From Rathayibacter oskolensis (GTDB taxonomy: Bacteria; Actinomycetota; Actinomycetes; Actinomycetales; Microbacteriaceae): a DNA stretch of 64,000 nucleotides. Positions within the stretch are counted from its first letter, which is position 1. Every line of letters begins with the position of its first letter. The translations under genes were made by a program, and so were the position numbers. Positions 42,595-51,957 of the stretch are shown here, piece after piece. Location of the stretch: the NCBI RefSeq assembly GCF_900177245.1, contig NZ_FXBM01000002.1:1054001-1118000 (forward strand), given 5' to 3'. The notes below the pieces were generated by a model. It saw only the letters and a program-made list of their open reading frames with translations, was not told where the DNA came from and ran no database searches.

Positions 42595-43881
42595 ATGGCT
42601 GGCTTCCGCGACGTCCTCGATCGACTGCTGGTCGACGCCGGCCTGGCGCGCAAGGTTGGCCTCGATCTGCTCGCGGCGCGGCGTGCCCGCCAGGCGGTCT
42701 CCCGGCTCCTCGCCGCTCGCGGGCCGCTCCCGCTCGGGCGCTTCGAGATCGGCGTGTACTTCGCCGACGGCGACATCAACCTCTACCAGGTGCGGCAGTG
42801 GTACCGGCCGCTCGAGGAGCTCGCGCGGACGCACCCGGTCGTGCTGCTCAGCCGCAACGCGACCGCTGCGGAGGTGATGCTGCGCGAGAGCCCCGTGCCC
42901 GTCGCCTACGTGCGGTCGGTCGCCGACCTCGAGACCACGATCGCCGAGCAGCCGCTGCGCATCGTCCTCTACGTGAACCAGAACTCGCGCAACTTCCAGA
43001 TGATGCGGTACGGGCGGAGGTGGCACGTCTTCGTCAATCACGGCGAGAGCGACAAGATGTACATGACCACCAACCAGTTCAAGGCCTACGACTACAGCCT
43101 CATCGCGGGCGATGCAGCGCTGGCACGGCTGCACCGGGTGCTCTGGGACTTCGACTTCGACAAGCGCGCCCTGCCGATCGGGCGCCCGCAGGCCGACCAC
43201 TTCGCCGGCCGCACGCCGTTCCCGCCGGACGAGCGGCAGGTCGTGCTCTACGCGCCGACCTGGGAGGGCGACCGGCCGGCTGCCGGCTACGGGTCGATCC
43301 GGAGCCACGGCGTCGCGCTGGTCGGTGCGCTCCTGGCCGACCCGCGCTACCGCCTGGTCTACCGCCCGCACCCCCGCAGCGGCGCGGTCGACCCCGACTA
43401 CGGAGCCGCCGACCGCCGGATCGCGGACATGATCGCCGCGGCGAACGCCGCCGACCCGACCGCCAGGCACGTGCACGACACGGGTGCCGAGCTCGGCTGG
43501 CAGCTGGCGGCCGCCGACCTCGCCGTCCTCGACGTCTCGGCCATGGTCTACGACCGCCTCGCGACCGGACGGCCGCTGATGGTGACGCGGCCCACGAGTC
43601 CCGACGCCGAGGTCGACGAGACCGGCTATCTCGGCGACGCGGAGTGGCTCCTCGCCGAGGACGCCTCGACGCTCCCGAGCAGGATCGCCGGCCCCGAGCA
43701 CGACGAGGCCGCGGTCGAGCGCCTCGAGCGCTGGGTCGGGCACTACTTCGGCGACACGAGCCCGGGGGCATCCACCCGCCGGTTCCACGCCGCGATCGAG
43801 CACCTGCTCGCCCAGTGGGAGCACCACGCCGCCCTGCACCACGACGACCCGGAGGTCGACGAGCGCGATCCGGAGCGCTGA
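42595..43881 (+). CDS. CDP-glycerol:glycerophosphate glycerophosphotransferase-like protein (TagB/TagF type)
   Basis: A 428-aa GT-B-fold protein of the teichoic-acid primase/polymerase family. HVFVNHGESDKMYMTTNQ carries the catalytic His of the HGxxxK block, VVLYAPTWEGDRP is the YAPTxR/W motif, and YRLVYRPHPRSG and the late ADLAVLDVSAMVYDRL bind the nucleotide. It transfers glycerol- or ribitol-phosphate, or a related polyol phosphate, from the CDP form onto a membrane acceptor. It lacks the long tandem domain of processive TagF. ATG 42595 is set by the -10-like box. An AI-2E-family gene follows. Confidence 0.82.
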   Translation: MAGFRDVLDRLLVDAGLARKVGLDLLAARRARQAVSRLLAARGPLPLGRFEIGVYFADGDINLYQVRQWYRPLEELARTHPVVLLSRNATAAEVMLRESPVPVAYVRSVADLETTIAEQPLRIVLYVNQNSRNFQMMRYGRRWHVFVNHGESDKMYMTTNQFKAYDYSLIAGDAALARLHRVLWDFDFDKRALPIGRPQADHFAGRTPFPPDERQVVLYAPTWEGDRPAAGYGSIRSHGVALVGALLADPRYRLVYRPHPRSGAVDPDYGAADRRIADMIAAANAADPTARHVHDTGAELGWQLAAADLAVLDVSAMVYDRLATGRPLMVTRPTSPDAEVDETGYLGDAEWLLAEDASTLPSRIAGPEHDEAAVERLERWVGHYFGDTSPGASTRRFHAAIEHLLAQWEHHAALHHDDPEVDERDPER

Positions 43882-45864: not shown

Positions 45865-47307
45865 ATGGCCTCGGCGGAGATCGAGATCCCGCTCCTGCTC
45901 GCGCCGTCCGCACGCGGCTCCGTCCGGGCGTCGCTCGCGGAGGCGCTGCGAGCGGCGGTGCTCGACGGACGCTACCGAGCCGGCGACGCGATCCCGTCCA
46001 GCCGCGTGCTCGCCGAGCAGCTGGGCGTCTCGCGCGGGACCGTCGTCGCGGCCGTCGACCAGCTCGTGGGGGAGGGCTACCTCGTCGCGCGCCCGCGTGC
46101 GGCCGTGACGGTCGCCTCCGACGGGATCGTCGTTCCCTCCTCCGCAGAGGCGTCGCCGCGCCGGGATCCCGTCGAGCCGGTTCCGGCGCGGCTCGACCTG
46201 CGGCCGGGACGGCCGGACACCCGCGGCCTCGACACTCCGGAGTGGCGGGCGGCGTGGCGGCCGGCCCTCTCCGCGCCCCCCTCCGACCTCCCGGTCGCGA
46301 CCGGTGATCCCGGTCTGCGCGAGAGCATCGCCGAGCAGCTCCGGCGTTCCCGCGGCCTCGATGTCGGGGCCGAGGACATCGTCGTGACGAGCGGAACAGC
46401 CGACGCCGTCGCCCTGCTCGCGCGAGCGGCCGCGAGCGCGCTCGGCCGTCCGGTCCGCGTGGCCGTGGAGGACCCCGGCTACCCGGCCGTGCGGCGTCGG
46501 CTGCGCGCCGAGGGCCACGAGATCGTCGGCGTCCCGGTCGTCGGCGACGGCATCGACCTCGGAGCGCTGGCTGCATCCGGGGCCGACATCGTCGTGGTGA
46601 CGCCCTCGCACCAGTACCCCACCGGCGGGCGCCTCGCCCTCGCCGCCCGCCTGGAGCTGGTCCGTCGGTCGGCCGGCGAGCGGCTCCTCGTGATCGAGGA
46701 CGACTACGACAGCGAGTTCCGCTACGTGGGAGCCCCGCTGCCCGCTCTCGCCTCTCTCGACACGGGCGGGGGAGTGGCGCACATCGGCTCGTTCTCGAAG
46801 ACGGTCTCGCCGTGGCTGAGGGTGGCCTACCTGGCGCTACCCGCGTCGTCGTGGCTGCGCGCGGCACTCGCCGAGATCGACGCCGAGCGGGACGCGTCCG
46901 TCTCGGGGCCGACGCAGGAGGCGCTCGCCGCGTTCATGGCGAGCGGCGCGTTCCGGCGCCACCTGACGCGGTCTCGGCGACGCTACGTGCACCGGCGCGA
47001 GCTGGTGAGGCGCTTCTCCGAGGCCGTCGACTGGGGCACGGCGAGCGGGCTCGACGGCGGGCTGCACGTGGTGCTGTCGCTGCCGCTCGACGCCTCGGTG
47101 GTCGCGGCCGCCCTCCACGCGGAGGGGCTCCTCGTCGCGACCCTCGACGAGTACGCGGTCTCGGGCCGGGCGACCGAGGACGCGCTCGTGCTCGGCTACG
47201 GCAGCACCGGCGATCTGGAGCTCGCGGAGGCGCTGACGATCATCGATCGCACCGTGCGGCGGCTCGTCCGTGATATCCGGCTCGTCCGTGATATCCCTGG
47301 AGGATGA
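45865..47307 (+). CDS. MocR/PdxR-type regulator (GntR HTH plus aminotransferase domain)
   Basis: A 480-aa fusion of a GntR winged helix (residues about 15-80; IPSSRVLAEQLGVSRGTVVAA) and a fold-type I aminotransferase domain. VVVTPSHQYPTGG and VIEDDYDSEFRY hold the cofactor, and the PLP lysine is Lys312 in GSFSKTVSPWLRVAY. Such proteins sense PLP or an amino compound and control vitamin B6 or linked genes. ATG 45865 has GGAGGA 4 nt upstream. Its last codons contain an 18-bp tandem duplication, and its stop overlaps the HhH-GPD gene by 4 nt. Confidence 0.9.
   Translation: MASAEIEIPLLLAPSARGSVRASLAEALRAAVLDGRYRAGDAIPSSRVLAEQLGVSRGTVVAAVDQLVGEGYLVARPRAAVTVASDGIVVPSSAEASPRRDPVEPVPARLDLRPGRPDTRGLDTPEWRAAWRPALSAPPSDLPVATGDPGLRESIAEQLRRSRGLDVGAEDIVVTSGTADAVALLARAAASALGRPVRVAVEDPGYPAVRRRLRAEGHEIVGVPVVGDGIDLGALAASGADIVVVTPSHQYPTGGRLALAARLELVRRSAGERLLVIEDDYDSEFRYVGAPLPALASLDTGGGVAHIGSFSKTVSPWLRVAYLALPASSWLRAALAEIDAERDASVSGPTQEALAAFMASGAFRRHLTRSRRRYVHRRELVRRFSEAVDWGTASGLDGGLHVVLSLPLDASVVAAALHAEGLLVATLDEYAVSGRATEDALVLGYGSTGDLELAEALTIIDRTVRRLVRDIRLVRDIPGG
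47260..47295. repeat. Perfect 18-bp tandem duplication at the MocR gene 3' end
   Basis: Units 47260-47277 and 47278-47295 are identical. They encode the repeated RLVRDI near the C-terminus and end 8 nt before the ATG of the next gene. Confidence 0.85.
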
Positions 47308-47903
47308 CTGCCGACGCCGCACTGCACATCACCGACGACCCCGAGGCCGACGCGCTCCTCACCCGGGATCCGCTCGCCCTGCTGATCGGCATGCTGCTCG
47401 ACCAGCAGGTCGCGATGGAGACGGCGTTCTCGGGTCCGCTCAAGATCGAGCAGCGCCTGGCGGAGGCGGGGGCCGCGTTCGATGCCGCGTCGATCGCCTC
47501 CTTCGACGAGGACGACTTCTCGGAGCTGTGCCGGACGCCGCCGGCGATCCACCGCTACCCGGCGAACATGGCCGGGCGGGTGCAGGTGCTCTGCCGGGCG
47601 CTGGTCGACGACTGGGGAGCGGACGCCTCCGCGATCTGGACCCGCGACGAGCCCGACGGCCGCACGGTGCTGGCCCGCCTGAAGGCGCTGCCCGGTTTCG
47701 GTGACCAGAAGGCGCAGATCTTCGTGGCGCTGCTCGGCAAGCGGCGCGGCTTCACCGGGGCGGGATGGCGTGAGGCGGCCGGGGCCTACGGCGAGGAGGA
47801 CTCGTTCCGCTCGGTGGCCGACATCGTGTCGCCGGAGTCGCTGGCGAAGGTGCGGGCGACGAAGCAGGCGGCCAAGGCCGCGGCGCGGGAGTCGAAGAAG
47901 TAG
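47304..47903 (+). CDS. HhH-GPD-type DNA repair-like protein
   Basis: A 199-aa protein of the helix-hairpin-helix GPD superfamily. ALLIGMLLDQQVAMETAFSG corresponds to the family's QQ-containing helix, and KALPGFGDQKAQIFVALLGK is the hairpin. The catalytic Asp that base-excision glycosylases place about 18 residues after the hairpin (VDTH-like) is missing; the sequence there reads KRRGFTGAGW. It may bind DNA without glycosylase chemistry, or use other residues. The C-terminus is basic. ATG 47304 overlaps the MocR stop; the upstream CTGGAGG supplies a ribosome-binding site. Confidence 0.78.
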   Translation: MTADAALHITDDPEADALLTRDPLALLIGMLLDQQVAMETAFSGPLKIEQRLAEAGAAFDAASIASFDEDDFSELCRTPPAIHRYPANMAGRVQVLCRALVDDWGADASAIWTRDEPDGRTVLARLKALPGFGDQKAQIFVALLGKRRGFTGAGWREAAGAYGEEDSFRSVADIVSPESLAKVRATKQAAKAAARESKK

Positions 47904-47926: not shown

Positions 47927-49426
47927 TCAGATCCGGTCGTCGAGCTCCGCGATCAGCGCGGCCCGGTCCTCGCGCAGGATCGACGCCCCGCTCCCAGGGA
48001 TCCCGCGGACCTCGACACCGCGCGCGGTGAGCACCGTCGCGAGGGACGGGTGGCCCAGCGGGTCCTCCGGCAGCACCGCGAGGGTCGGAACGGTGAAGCC
48101 CGCGGGAGCCTCCGCCGCGCCCTTCGCCGTCAGACCGCTCGCCGAGGACGGATCCCAGAGGCGGTGCGCCGAGACGTCGAGCTCGATCTGCTCGTCGGTC
48201 CAGATCGGGTGCCGGCGACGCACCTCGTCGGCGTCGCCCTTCTCGACCTGCGCGAGAGCGCCGGTCCGGCGCAGGGTGCCGGTCAGACCCCGCGCGTCCG
48301 AGAAGGCGGGGTCGAGCAGGATCAGGCGCTCGGGCCGGTAGCCGTCGACGAGCTCGGCCGCGACCAGCGCGCCGAGGCCGTGGCCGATGATGAGGTCGGG
48401 AGTCTGCAGCACCGACGCGCGCACGTCGCCCGCCCAGCGCTCCGGCGAGTACGACGGCGACTTCGGAGACCCGCCGTGACCGGCCAGGTCGGGCGCGATC
48501 ACGCGGTAGCCGTGCTCGTGGAGGGTCGGCACGAGGGCGTACCAGACCCTCGAGTCCGAGGCGAGGCCGTGCAGCAGCAGCGCCACCCGCTCACCCGCCC
48601 CGCCGTAGTCGCGGACGTACAGCTCGAGGGGCTCCGCCGGACCGGCCGACAGCGCCTTCCGCTCGGCGTGCGTGGGCTCGAGCACCAGGGAGTTGGCGAA
48701 GACCTGGGGAGCCGGGCCGAACGCGTCGCGGGCGCTGCGCACGACCGCGCGTCCGAGCATCGCGTTGCCGGCGCCTCCGATCGCGGCACCGATGCCGAAC
48801 GGCAGGGCCCGCCCGACGAGACCCGCGCCCTGCTGGGCGAGGAAGTGGTGGGTGAAGGAGCGCTTGGCCCGATCGGCGATCTCGCCTACCAGGAACGACG
48901 GCAGCCCCTTCGTGACCACGGAACCCCAGTACTGGTTCATGCCGTTCCCGCCGCCGGTGGCCTGGCTCGCGACCTGGCGCACGAGGTCGCTCCCGGAGGA
49001 GCCCATCATCAGCGTCAGCACGAGGGCGCGGGCGCGCTCCGGGTCCTCGAGGCGGATGCCGTGCACCTCCGTCACCGACTGCGCGAAGAGGGCGCTGGCC
49101 TCGAGGAACCCCGCCGCCCCGGCGCCCGACAGGGCGAGGGAGGTGATGGTGCCGATCCCGGGGACGACGGCGGTCGCTCCGATGGCCGCGCCGCCCGCGG
49201 CGACGCTGGCGAGGTACTGCCGCTCGAGCGACGTGATGAGCTGGTCGGGAGTCGCGTTCGGCCGACGGCGTCGCAGCGCGCGGATGTTCGCGAGCACCGC
49301 GGGGCGCTGGACGGCCAGCAGCCGATCGAGGATGCGCGCGAGCTGCGCGTTCTCGACCTGCGCCTCCGAACCCGACGTGTCGTCGATCCGCTTCTCGAGA
49401 TCGCGCTTGCGCTTGCGGTCGGCCAT
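47927..49426 (-). CDS. Fusion of a helical membrane-interacting domain with a degenerate alpha/beta hydrolase
   Basis: A 499-aa protein. Residues 1-40 are charged; 60-235 are helical with Gly/Ala-rich membrane-like stretches (VAAGGAAIGATAVVPGIGTI, GAGLVGRALPFGIGAAIGGA), reminiscent of EcsC-type proteins. From about 265 an alpha/beta hydrolase follows (RVALLLHGLASDSRVWYALV, APDLAGHGGS). The nucleophile elbow reads IIGHGLGA, with Gly for Ser, and the His motif reads PGSGASILRED, with Ala for His. The hydrolase is thus probably inactive. ATG 49426 has AGGAG 9 nt upstream; GTG 49480, coupled to the ABC gene by GTGA, is the alternative. Confidence 0.75.
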   Translation of the reverse strand: MADRKRKRDLEKRIDDTSGSEAQVENAQLARILDRLLAVQRPAVLANIRALRRRRPNATPDQLITSLERQYLASVAAGGAAIGATAVVPGIGTITSLALSGAGAAGFLEASALFAQSVTEVHGIRLEDPERARALVLTLMMGSSGSDLVRQVASQATGGGNGMNQYWGSVVTKGLPSFLVGEIADRAKRSFTHHFLAQQGAGLVGRALPFGIGAAIGGAGNAMLGRAVVRSARDAFGPAPQVFANSLVLEPTHAERKALSAGPAEPLELYVRDYGGAGERVALLLHGLASDSRVWYALVPTLHEHGYRVIAPDLAGHGGSPKSPSYSPERWAGDVRASVLQTPDLIIGHGLGALVAAELVDGYRPERLILLDPAFSDARGLTGTLRRTGALAQVEKGDADEVRRRHPIWTDEQIELDVSAHRLWDPSSASGLTAKGAAEAPAGFTVPTLAVLPEDPLGHPSLATVLTARGVEVRGIPGSGASILREDRAALIAELDDRI

Positions 49427-49476: not shown

Positions 49477-50277
49477 TCACTCGGCGGCGGCCTGCGGTTT
49501 CGGCGCGTAGTCCTCAGCGTAACGGGCGAGCACCTCGTCGATCGGCCCGTCCAGAACGAGCGCGCCCTTGTCGAGGTAGAGCCCGCGCGTGCAGAACCGA
49601 CGCAGGTCGCGCTCGTTGTGCGAGACGAAGAACAGCGTCCGGCCGGCGGCGAGGAGCTCCTCGATCCGCGCGTAGCACTTCTCGCGGAAGGCCTTGTCGC
49701 CGACGGCGAGCACCTCGTCGACGAGGATGATCGGCTCCTCGAGGCGCGAGACCACCGAGAAGGCGATGCGCACCTTCATCCCGCTCGAGAGGTGCTTGTA
49801 GGGGGTGTCGAGGAAGTCGCCGATCTCGGCGAACTCGATGATCGAGTCGAACCGGGCGTCGACCTCGCGTCGCGACATGCCGTGCAGGCCGGCGGTGAGG
49901 TAGACGTTCTCGCGGACGCTGAGGTCGGCGACGAACCCGCCGGTGATCTCGATCAGCGGAGCGACGCCTCCGCGCACCTCGACGACGCCCTCGTCGGGCA
50001 GGACCACGCCCGCGACCAGCTTGAGGAGGGTCGACTTGCCCTGACCGTTGCGCCCGACGACACCGATCGCCTCGCCGGCCCGTACCTCGACATCGAGGCC
50101 GCGCAGCGCCCAGAACTCTCCCGGTCGCGAGCGCCGGGCACCGCCCGAGAACAGGTCCTTGAAGGAGCGGCGGCCGCGGCGGTTGCGGCGGAAGCGGATG
50201 CCGAGGCCGCGGCAGGCGATGACGACGGGGGCCTCGGCGGGGGTCGACGCGGAGGTCGACGCGGGGGGAGGCGTCAT
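49477..50277 (-). CDS. ABC transporter ATP-binding protein for wall glycopolymer export (TagH/Wzt-like)
   Basis: A 266-aa ABC ATPase. Walker A GRNGQGKST, signature LSSGMKVRI, Walker B IILVDEVLAVGD and the H-loop FVSHN are present. FRRNRRGRRSFKDLFSGG before the domain, IEITGGFVADLSVRENVYL, and the LSSGM signature are specific to teichoic acid and O-antigen exporters. It powers transfer of an undecaprenyl-linked polymer across the membrane. There is no C-terminal carbohydrate-binding domain. It overlaps the permease gene by 1 nt (TGATG). Confidence 0.9.
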   Translation of the reverse strand: MTPPPASTSASTPAEAPVVIACRGLGIRFRRNRRGRRSFKDLFSGGARRSRPGEFWALRGLDVEVRAGEAIGVVGRNGQGKSTLLKLVAGVVLPDEGVVEVRGGVAPLIEITGGFVADLSVRENVYLTAGLHGMSRREVDARFDSIIEFAEIGDFLDTPYKHLSSGMKVRIAFSVVSRLEEPIILVDEVLAVGDKAFREKCYARIEELLAAGRTLFFVSHNERDLRRFCTRGLYLDKGALVLDGPIDEVLARYAEDYAPKPQAAAE

Positions 50278-51101
50278 CACAGCTCCTTCAGGACCGCGCG
50301 CTCCGAACGGCGGAAGACGATCAGCCCGAGACCGAGCACGAGGACCGAGATCAGCGCGGAGGAGAGGATCAGCGGCAGGTCGAGCTCGCTCGCGAAGAAC
50401 GTCGAGCGGTAGAGGGCGAAGATCCCGCTGAGCGGATTGAGGGCGGCGAGCGGCCGGATCGCCTCGGGGAGGTTCGCGGTCGAGTAGATGATCGGCGACG
50501 CGTAGAAGAGGAAGCGCAGGACCAGCTTGATGGCCCGCTCGAGATCGCGGAAGAAGACGACCAGCGGAGCGACCAGGAGGCCGACCCCCAGGGTGAGGAC
50601 CGCCTGCAGGAGGATCGCCACGGGGAAGAGCAGGATCGCCGGAGTGACGCTCGCGCCCGCGATCACCGCGAAGAGCACGAGGACCGGCAGGCTCGCCACG
50701 AACTCGATGCCCTTCGACAGCACGATCCGGCCGACCCAGATCGTGCGCGGGATCGACGTGGAGCGGACCAGCTTCGTCTCGCGGAGGAACGCCCGGGTCG
50801 CGTCGGACGTGGCCTGGTTGAACCACATCCACGGGAGGAGCCCGGCGAGCAGGAAGACGATGTAGGGGTCCTCGCCCACCGACCGGTCGAAGACCACGGT
50901 GAAGACGAAGTAGTAGATGCCCGACATCACGAGCGGGTCGAGCACCGACCAGAAGTAGCCGAGCGCGCTGGTCGCGTAGCGCACCGTCAGGTCGCGCTTC
51001 GTCAGGAGCCAGAGCGAGTGCCGGTAGCGCCACGCTCGCGAGCGGCGGTGACGGACGGCGGTGTCGGACTCGGCGTCGCCGACGCGTGCGGACGTGCTCA
51101 C
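50277..51101 (-). CDS. ABC-2 permease for wall glycopolymer export (TagG/Wzm-like)
   Basis: A 274-aa membrane protein with about six helices. LLTKRDLTVRYATSALGYFWSVLDPL is the classic N-terminal motif of polysaccharide ABC-2 permeases; the FYASPIIY and LNPLSGIFALYR segments near the end confirm it. It forms the channel with the ATPase encoded next. GTG 51101 has GGAGGAG 9 nt upstream; the longer upstream frame is low-complexity. The LicC-like nucleotidyltransferase gene lies 70 bases upstream in the same direction, so the three probably form one operon. Confidence 0.9.
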   Translation of the reverse strand: MSTSARVGDAESDTAVRHRRSRAWRYRHSLWLLTKRDLTVRYATSALGYFWSVLDPLVMSGIYYFVFTVVFDRSVGEDPYIVFLLAGLLPWMWFNQATSDATRAFLRETKLVRSTSIPRTIWVGRIVLSKGIEFVASLPVLVLFAVIAGASVTPAILLFPVAILLQAVLTLGVGLLVAPLVVFFRDLERAIKLVLRFLFYASPIIYSTANLPEAIRPLAALNPLSGIFALYRSTFFASELDLPLILSSALISVLVLGLGLIVFRRSERAVLKEL

Positions 51102-51171
51102 TGCGCGCGACTCCTCCCGGCCGACTCCGTTCGAGCCGATTGCGGTCGAGCCGGGGGAGGCTCCGCGGGCG

Positions 51172-51957
51172 TCAGACGAAGAGGTTCGCGCGCTCGAGGT
51201 CCTCGGCGAAATCCACCTCGACCGCATAGAGGTCGGAGATGTCCATCGGCTCGACGAGCAGCCTGTCCTGCTCGATCGCCAACTCTATGCCACGCTCGAA
51301 GTAGTCCTGGGCGTCGACCCGGGCCAGCTGGCGGATGAGCGCCGGCTTGTCGGCCGCCGAGACGTAGTTGATGCCCACGGCCTCGCCGAGACCGCCGCGC
51401 ACCGTCTTCGAGAGCTCGTCGATGTAGCCCTCGGCGCTCGTCGTGTACTTGACCTCCTCGTCGGACACCTTGGCGGTGTTGACGGTGACGAAGGAGGTGT
51501 CCTTCGCGACGAGCACGGCGGCCCGGTCGAGGATGCGGGGGTCGAACACGACGTCGCCGTTCATCCAGAGGACCCCGCCCTGGCCGGAGGCCTGGAGCGC
51601 ACGCAGGAGGCTCTTCGACGTGTTGGTCTGGTCGTACTGCTCGTTGTAGACGAACGACGCCGACGGGAACGCCTCGATGATGTGCTCGAGCTTGTAGCCG
51701 ACGACGATGCTCACCGGCACCTTCGTACCGAAGGCGTGGTGGATGTTGTCGAACTGCTGCTGCATGATCGTGCGGCCGTCGCTGAGGGGGGTCAGCGGCT
51801 TCGGGAGGGAGCGGCCGAGACGGCTGCCCATGCCCGCGGCGAGGATGACGACGGTGGCGGGGATGCTGCTCGAACCGGAGCCGGTGCTCGTCCGGCCGGT
51901 GCCGACGGCGTCGGCGCCTCGAGTGTCATCGCCGCCTCGAGTGTCTCTGTGTGCCAT
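51172..51957 (-). CDS. LicC-like nucleotidyltransferase (phospho-alcohol or sugar-phosphate cytidylyltransferase type)
   Basis: A 261-aa NTP-transferase fold enzyme. The signature VILAAGMGSRLGRSLPKPLTPL lies near residues 36-57, and WMNGDVVFDPRIL carries the metal-binding Asp. SIVVGYKLEHII and VYNEQYDQTNTSKSLL match phosphocholine cytidylyltransferases (LicC) and related CTP-using enzymes. It would supply an activated CDP-alcohol or NDP-sugar for the polymer exported by the adjacent transporter. The first 34 residues are disordered. ATG 51957 has GAGGAG 9 nt upstream. Confidence 0.8.
   Translation of the reverse strand: MAHRDTRGGDDTRGADAVGTGRTSTGSGSSSIPATVVILAAGMGSRLGRSLPKPLTPLSDGRTIMQQQFDNIHHAFGTKVPVSIVVGYKLEHIIEAFPSASFVYNEQYDQTNTSKSLLRALQASGQGGVLWMNGDVVFDPRILDRAAVLVAKDTSFVTVNTAKVSDEEVKYTTSAEGYIDELSKTVRGGLGEAVGINYVSAADKPALIRQLARVDAQDYFERGIELAIEQDRLLVEPMDISDLYAVEVDFAEDLERANLFV

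What the first reader, a model, noticed from the sequence alone, without database searches (positions are those of the whole stretch)
47927..49426. Fusion of an EcsC-like helical domain to a triad-less alpha/beta hydrolase
The hydrolase half keeps the fold motifs, but its nucleophile is Gly (GHGLGA) and its His position is Ala (GASILRED). Two independent losses of the triad point to a pseudoenzyme used for binding. The helical, Gly-rich partner domain probably touches membranes. It sits directly after the wall-polymer exporter genes, so a scaffold or sensor for export or lipid carriers is possible. This is the strongest candidate here for an undescribed protein type.
Basis: partly seen in the sequence, partly recalled or inferred. 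Interest (0 to 1): 0.7.

Follow-up and report, generated by a model that had tools for sequence, protein, structure and literature searches.

The report
Exporter-linked EcsC-like protein with dead hydrolase
In Rathayibacter bacteria, a helical protein encoded beside a cell-wall polymer exporter has gained a second half that was once an enzyme; most species examined have since lost that half's catalytic residues but kept the rest, which suggests it now binds something rather than cutting it.

Summary
Window 47927-49426 (-) is one 499-aa ORF: an EcsC-like helical domain (about 30-240) joined to an alpha/beta hydrolase domain (about 269-499), with Gly350 in the nucleophile column and Ala481 in the His column. 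The fusion is in 15 of 15 genus genomes searched; it was not seen outside the genus in samples of 299 family and 396 order genomes (match tables capped). Elsewhere the EcsC-like gene stands alone, and 19 of 19 aligned free hydrolases keep Ser and His. Of 16 fused copies, 14 have Gly plus Ala or Ser, one Gly plus Leu, one keeps Ser and His. Flanking-gene and rpoB trees make the last two sisters, so catalysis was probably lost twice after fusion; the hydrolase-only tree does not settle this. The dead domain is still constrained (dN/dS 0.10-0.23 in 13 chosen pairs). The gene follows tagH in 15 of 15 Rathayibacter loci; the stand-alone gene does in 27 of 36 other family loci. Best reading: an exporter-associated protein whose acquired hydrolase domain became a binding or regulatory module. 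Ligand and physical link are inferred.

The parts
47927..49426 (-). CDS of the fusion protein (499 aa), ATG at 49426
   Evidence: full-length match in 15 of 15 genus genomes, one of them (G001/L001) with an in-frame stop near its start
48707..49339 (-). EcsC-like helical domain, residues about 30-240
48623..48691 (-). variable linker, residues about 246-268
   Evidence: 7 of 23 columns invariant among 13 dead copies
47930..48622 (-). alpha/beta hydrolase domain, residues about 269-499
48377..48379 (-). codon 350, Gly in the nucleophile position
47984..47986 (-). codon 481, Ala in the catalytic His position
49477..50289 (-). TagH/Wzt-type ABC ATPase, directly upstream (start codon not settled)
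   Evidence: upstream on the same strand in 15 of 15 Rathayibacter loci, and upstream of the stand-alone gene in 27 of 36 other Microbacteriaceae loci
50277..51227 (-). TagG/Wzm-type ABC-2 permease
51172..51957 (-). sugar-phosphate nucleotidyltransferase-like gene upstream of the permease
47304..47903 (+). convergent HhH-GPD protein, downstream boundary of the gene group

Best explanation
Supported by sequence: an EcsC-like helical protein is a frequent downstream neighbour of a TagGH/Wzm-Wzt-type exporter in Microbacteriaceae, and in the Rathayibacter ancestor an alpha/beta hydrolase related to a free-standing, Ser/His-bearing family was fused to its C-terminus. After fusion the nucleophile and His were lost in the ancestor of most of the genus and, probably independently, in the G014 lineage, while the rest of the domain stayed under purifying selection. 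Inferred: the EcsC-like half sits at the cytoplasmic face of the membrane with the exporter, and the dead hydrolase half binds a ligand (such as a lipid-linked intermediate) or a protein partner without cleaving it, regulating or scaffolding export.
For: Fusion in 15 of 15 genus genomes and not seen outside the genus in three samples (capped tables). Ser and His in 19 of 19 aligned free-standing relatives and in one fused copy (L021), absent in 15 of 16 fused copies counting the window. G014/G015 sister group: 100 UFBoot on TagG+TagH+N and 100 on rpoB. Hydrolase-half dN/dS 0.10-0.23 in 13 chosen pairs; Gly kept through four synonymous codons. Exporter adjacency 15 of 15 and 27 of 36. TagH orthologue (E <= 1e-100) in 61 of 71 genomes with the EcsC-like domain against 15 of 71 without.
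Against: No structure, localisation, ligand or interaction data; both AlphaFold2 models were poor (mean pLDDT 39.9 and 48.0). dN/dS is higher in the hydrolase half than in the N half in 12 of 13 pairs, so it is less constrained. One genus copy has an in-frame stop. The hydrolase-only tree prefers G014 with the main clade (p-AU 0.793), though the G014+G015 grouping is not rejected (0.247); for the flanking genes the alternatives are not rejected at 5% either (p-AU 0.052 and 0.093). Outside Microbacteriaceae 0 of 14 loci show the TagH link, and 9 of 36 family loci lack it within the 1.5 kb flank. The co-occurrence is confounded by relatedness and by reduced genomes among those lacking the domain; for the 20 of those with 2 Mb or more, 7 have TagH, still fewer than 61 of 71.
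Confidence: 0.55

Rival explanations
1. Passive decay: the fused hydrolase domain lost its use and is drifting, kept only because it is attached to a useful EcsC-like half.
For: Residues lost apparently twice with different replacements; dN/dS higher in the hydrolase half in 12 of 13 pairs; one copy with an in-frame stop.
Against: dN/dS stays at 0.10-0.23; 124 of 231 hydrolase columns are invariant across 13 dead copies, including 11 of 15 in the former His loop and 11 of 16 around the former nucleophile; all 15 genus copies match over both domains.
Confidence: 0.2
2. The domain still catalyses a reaction that does not use the Ser/His pair.
For: H286, D291, S292, D313, H317 and H349 are kept in all 16 copies; the presumed acid position is Glu or Asp in 15 of 16.
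Against: Both residues of the relay are gone in 15 of 16 copies, with varied His replacements (Ala, Ser, Leu). I made no systematic search for an alternative catalytic residue.
Confidence: 0.1
3. The exporter link is only neighbourhood inheritance; the EcsC-like protein serves another membrane function.
For: The EcsC-like domain matches in 102 of 394 class genomes, some of them weakly; 0 of 14 loci from other families carry a TagH orthologue beside it; 9 of 36 family loci lack it within the flank.
Against: Adjacency persists in 27 of 36 loci at about 54-63% N-domain identity to the window, and presence correlates with the TagH orthologue.
Confidence: 0.3

Closest known systems
EcsC family (Pfam PF12787)
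   Same: Profile-profile match over about 170 columns; shared C-terminal P-G-G-N-type segment. Recalled: B. subtilis ecsC lies downstream of the ecsAB ABC-transporter genes, a similar gene order
   Different: Single sequences miss Pfam's model or hit it weakly (9 of 34 at E <= 1, best 2.2e-4). In 36 stand-alone Microbacteriaceae loci only a 2-99-residue tail follows the domain, no hydrolase
Abhydrolase_6 / alpha-beta hydrolase family (PF12697); nearest are the free-standing Microbacteriaceae hydrolases L099-L104
   Same: 41-45% identity to the hydrolase half of the Ser/His-bearing fused copy L021
   Different: Free-standing, Ser and His intact; other neighbourhoods (Pth/Mfd-like or HflX/LexA-like neighbours, named by recall from the sequences)
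TagGH and mycobacterial Wzm-Wzt galactan exporters (NF010065, NF050108, NF050109)
   Same: The two upstream genes match these models best
   Different: The matches shown are below the curated cut-offs; cargo unknown; as recalled, neither system is defined by an EcsC-like third gene
Alpha/beta hydrolase-fold pseudoenzymes (neuroligins and others, recalled)
   Same: Hydrolase fold kept without a catalytic triad and used for binding
   Different: Bacterial, fused to an EcsC-like domain, with a triad-bearing fused homologue in the same genus

Membership tests
Alpha/beta hydrolase fold (Abhydrolase_6) | Profile match above the curated cut-off | tested here: met
   57.3 bits against 26.3
Catalytically competent serine hydrolase | Nucleophile (Ser, Cys or Asp) at the GxSxG elbow | tested here: not met
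   Gly in the window and in 15 of 16 fused copies counting it
Catalytically competent serine hydrolase | Catalytic His after the last strand | tested here: not met
   Ala in the window; Ala, Ser or Leu in 15 of 16 copies
EcsC (PF12787) | Single-sequence match above the Pfam cut-off | tested here: not met
   No EcsC hit for the window. PF12787 at E <= 10 matched 2 of 6 genomes, at other places than this gene
EcsC (PF12787) | Remote homology at profile level | tested here: met
   Probability 98.6, E 1e-15; controls 0.1-0.6
EcsC (PF12787) | Shared three-dimensional fold | tested here: inconclusive
   Model pLDDT 39.9; no PDB match by sequence below E 0.1 for either profile
Component of a TagGH/Wzm-Wzt exporter | Conserved gene adjacency | tested here: met
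   15 of 15 Rathayibacter and 27 of 36 other Microbacteriaceae loci; but 0 of 14 in other families
Component of a TagGH/Wzm-Wzt exporter | Physical association or export phenotype | not testable with these tools
   needs bench work

The most novel reading that the evidence does not exclude
A third component of an actinobacterial wall-polymer ABC exporter, an EcsC-like protein, in which a fused hydrolase was switched from enzyme to binding module twice within one genus, with a triad-bearing relative still present: a natural before-and-after pair for how pseudoenzymes arise and for what EcsC proteins do at ABC transporters.
Probability: 0.35. Interest if true: 0.65.

Novelty: new variant of a known kind. 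Interest (0 to 1): 0.45.

Why it matters
No solved structure was found by sequence for EcsC-family proteins, and my searches of the held library gave no paper on their function (listings and one passage seen). An EcsC-like gene with conserved position after a TagGH-type exporter gives a testable role. The Rathayibacter fusion adds a natural series (intact, separately lost, long lost) for asking what a hydrolase domain is kept for once catalysis is gone.

Tried and rejected
Rejected: fusion by sequencing or annotation error (full-length match in 15 of 15 genus genomes, 14 of them without an in-frame stop). Rejected, within the samples searched: a broad family of EcsC-hydrolase fusions. In one search a few rows outside the genus run to query residue 280-290, just past the EcsC-like domain; none listed goes further. 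Rejected: a separate hydrolase gene between tagH and the EcsC-like gene in the 7 loci with a 0.78-0.96 kb gap (no hydrolase hit there; the open frames in the gaps were looked at but not identified).

Neighbours of the free-standing hydrolases look like housekeeping genes and give no substrate hint. The literature searches listed no paper on this fusion.

Limits and dropped rows. The hydrolase-only tree conflicts with the flanking-gene tree on where G014 sits. I read this as attraction between fast-evolving dead copies, but the test does not decide it. The L007 copy was left out of the invariant-column count (13 dead copies). L036, a hydrolase locus, gave no hit with the L021 query and was not in the 19 aligned. 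L042 was left out of alignment A2. The 13 dN/dS pairs were chosen by hand from 120 possible and share sequences. The 36 synteny loci are the best-scoring ones, not a random draw.

Full report
What is there. Window 47927-49426 (-) is a single 499-aa ORF. Pfam finds an alpha/beta hydrolase domain at 283-492 (Abhydrolase_6, E 4.7e-15) and nothing significant in the first 250 residues. The gene follows a TagH/Wzt-type ATPase (49477-50289) and a TagG/Wzm-type permease (50277-51227) on the same strand, with a nucleotidyltransferase-like gene upstream of those. The best NCBIfam matches of the exporter genes are teichoic-acid TagH and mycobacterial galactan Wzt/Wzm, below their curated cut-offs, so the cargo is unknown.

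Identity of the N-terminal half. Single sequences hardly reach EcsC: the window gives no hit, and 9 of 34 aligned sequences give weak ones at E <= 1, the best 2.2e-4. PF12787 at E <= 10 matched 2 of 6 genomes, at other places than this gene. At profile level the link is strong: 34 N-domains against 15 EcsC-family proteins gave probability 98.6 and E 1e-15 over about 170 columns, while one reversed and five column-shuffled versions gave 0.1-0.6. 'EcsC-like' is therefore right as remote homology. Neither profile matched a solved structure below E 0.1.

Distribution. A genome-contig scan found six loci, all in records named Rathayibacter. The tool holds 15 genomes of that genus; all 15 have the full-length fusion at 66-91% identity. 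Nine of them are unnamed and placed in the genus by the tool. The genus lies in Microbacteriaceae. In a 299-genome family sample, 228 match the N-domain at E <= 0.001, but with the full-length query only the six Rathayibacter genomes in that sample match across both domains (the table is capped). A 99-genome relatives search and a 396-genome order search (four candidates scored per genome, table capped) also showed the fusion only in Rathayibacter genomes. The N-domain profile matched 102 of 394 class genomes at E <= 0.001, the lowest of them weakly and in part. In 36 stand-alone Microbacteriaceae loci the protein ends in a tail of median 49 residues (2-99), net positive in 29 of 36. In Rathayibacter the hydrolase takes the place of that tail.

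Catalytic residues. In 16 fused copies (15 genomes and the window) the nucleophile/His columns read Gly/Ala in 12, Gly/Ser in 2, Gly/Leu in 1 (L020, genome G014) and Ser/His in 1 (L021, genome G015). All 19 free-standing hydrolases aligned keep Ser and His: six at 41-45% identity to the L021 hydrolase half and 13 more distant Rathayibacter paralogues. L021's Ser aligns with the serine of the GHSMG motif of a solved hydrolase (3qit), and its His with that chain's GGH segment in a second stretch that is not significant. So fusion most simply preceded the loss.

How often was it lost. A tree of TagG+TagH+N-domain joins G014 and G015 with 100 UFBoot, and rpoB does so in both codings. With full codons the other 13 Rathayibacter form a clade at 100; with codon positions 1+2 they do not (support 41-70 along the backbone), where the partial G005 sequence has a very long branch beside G014/G015. 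With the first species tree the residues were lost in the ancestor of the main clade and separately in G014. Against this, the hydrolase-only tree prefers G014 with the main clade (p-AU 0.793); the G014+G015 grouping is not rejected (0.247), while G015 with the main clade is (0.023). For the flanking genes G014+G015 is best (0.935) and the alternatives score 0.052 and 0.093. I treat two losses as likely, not proven. Regain in G015 is a less simple alternative: its Ser codon (TCG) differs from Gly codons at two positions.

Selection. Pairwise dN/dS (Nei-Gojobori, own script) over 13 chosen pairs is 0.10-0.23 for the hydrolase half and 0.02-0.14 for the N half; the hydrolase half is higher in 12 of 13. 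One pair includes the copy with the stop (that codon skipped), and one is G014/G015. Among 13 dead copies, 124 of 231 hydrolase columns and 165 of 216 N-domain columns are invariant. The nucleophile column stays Gly through four synonymous codons. This is a retained domain, though less constrained than the N half. One copy (VKM Ac-2754) has an in-frame stop near its start; copies without a stop exist in the other 14 genomes.

Exporter link. TagG and TagH lie upstream on the same strand in 15 of 15 Rathayibacter loci. In 36 other Microbacteriaceae loci with the stand-alone gene (the best-scoring ones), TagH is upstream on the same strand within the flank in 27: 20 with under about 180 bp between the matches and 7 with 0.78-0.96 kb. 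It is absent within 1.5 kb in 9. In 14 loci from outside the family none has it. A TagH orthologue (E <= 1e-100) is in 61 of 71 genomes with the N-domain (71 of the 228, first by handle number, one weak match passed over) and in 15 of 71 without (51 of these 71 identified by elimination from the capped list) (Fisher p 3.4e-15). Many genomes lacking both are small; among the 20 without the N-domain that have 2 Mb or more, 7 have TagH (p 1.8e-5 against 61 of 71). Relatedness is not corrected for.

Mechanism. The most likely reading is that the EcsC-like half works with the exporter at the membrane and that the dead hydrolase half binds a ligand or partner. The pseudoenzyme part is well supported by sequence; the functional link is moderately supported by gene order; ligand, membrane contact and regulation are inference. 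From recall, B. subtilis ecsC also follows ABC-transporter genes, so EcsC-like proteins beside ABC transporters may be a recurring arrangement worth testing.

Literature. EcsC with membrane: 92 papers, 20 listed, none by title and abstract start about EcsC function; not opened. EcsC family with ABC transporter: one paper, of which I saw one table passage naming an EcsC family protein in C. diphtheriae. EcsA/B/C: four papers, listing only. 'EcsC domain': none. Hydrolase-fold pseudoenzymes: listing only. Rathayibacter with rhamnomannan or cell wall and Wzm/Wzt galactan: listings with abstract starts. The library holds few papers of subscription journals.

Noticed in passing
L001 (Rathayibacter sp. 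VKM Ac-2754), start of the fusion gene: An in-frame stop near the start of this copy; the other 14 genus genomes have copies without one. Sequencing error or real loss cannot be told here.
   Followed up: partly
L042, L059, L060, L087, L095, L096, L098: 0.78-0.96 kb lies between the tagH and EcsC-like matches; no hydrolase is there and the open frames in the gap were not identified.
   Followed up: partly
L022 (genome G012): A divergent stand-alone EcsC-like paralogue (37% identity) in a Rathayibacter genome that also has the fusion.
   Followed up: no
L099-L104: The free-standing hydrolase lies between Pth-like and Mfd-like genes in L103 and L104, and near HflX-like or LexA-like genes in L099-L102; gene names are recalled from the sequences.
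   Followed up: partly
window 42595-43881 (+): A 428-aa ORF, recalled as resembling glycerophosphotransferases, gave no Pfam hit at E <= 0.001 and no NCBIfam hit at E <= 1e-5.
   Followed up: no
L136 and L139: EcsC-type proteins below the Pfam cut-off whose C-terminal segment looks, by eye, much like the window N-domain; a possible bridge between the two groups.
   Followed up: no
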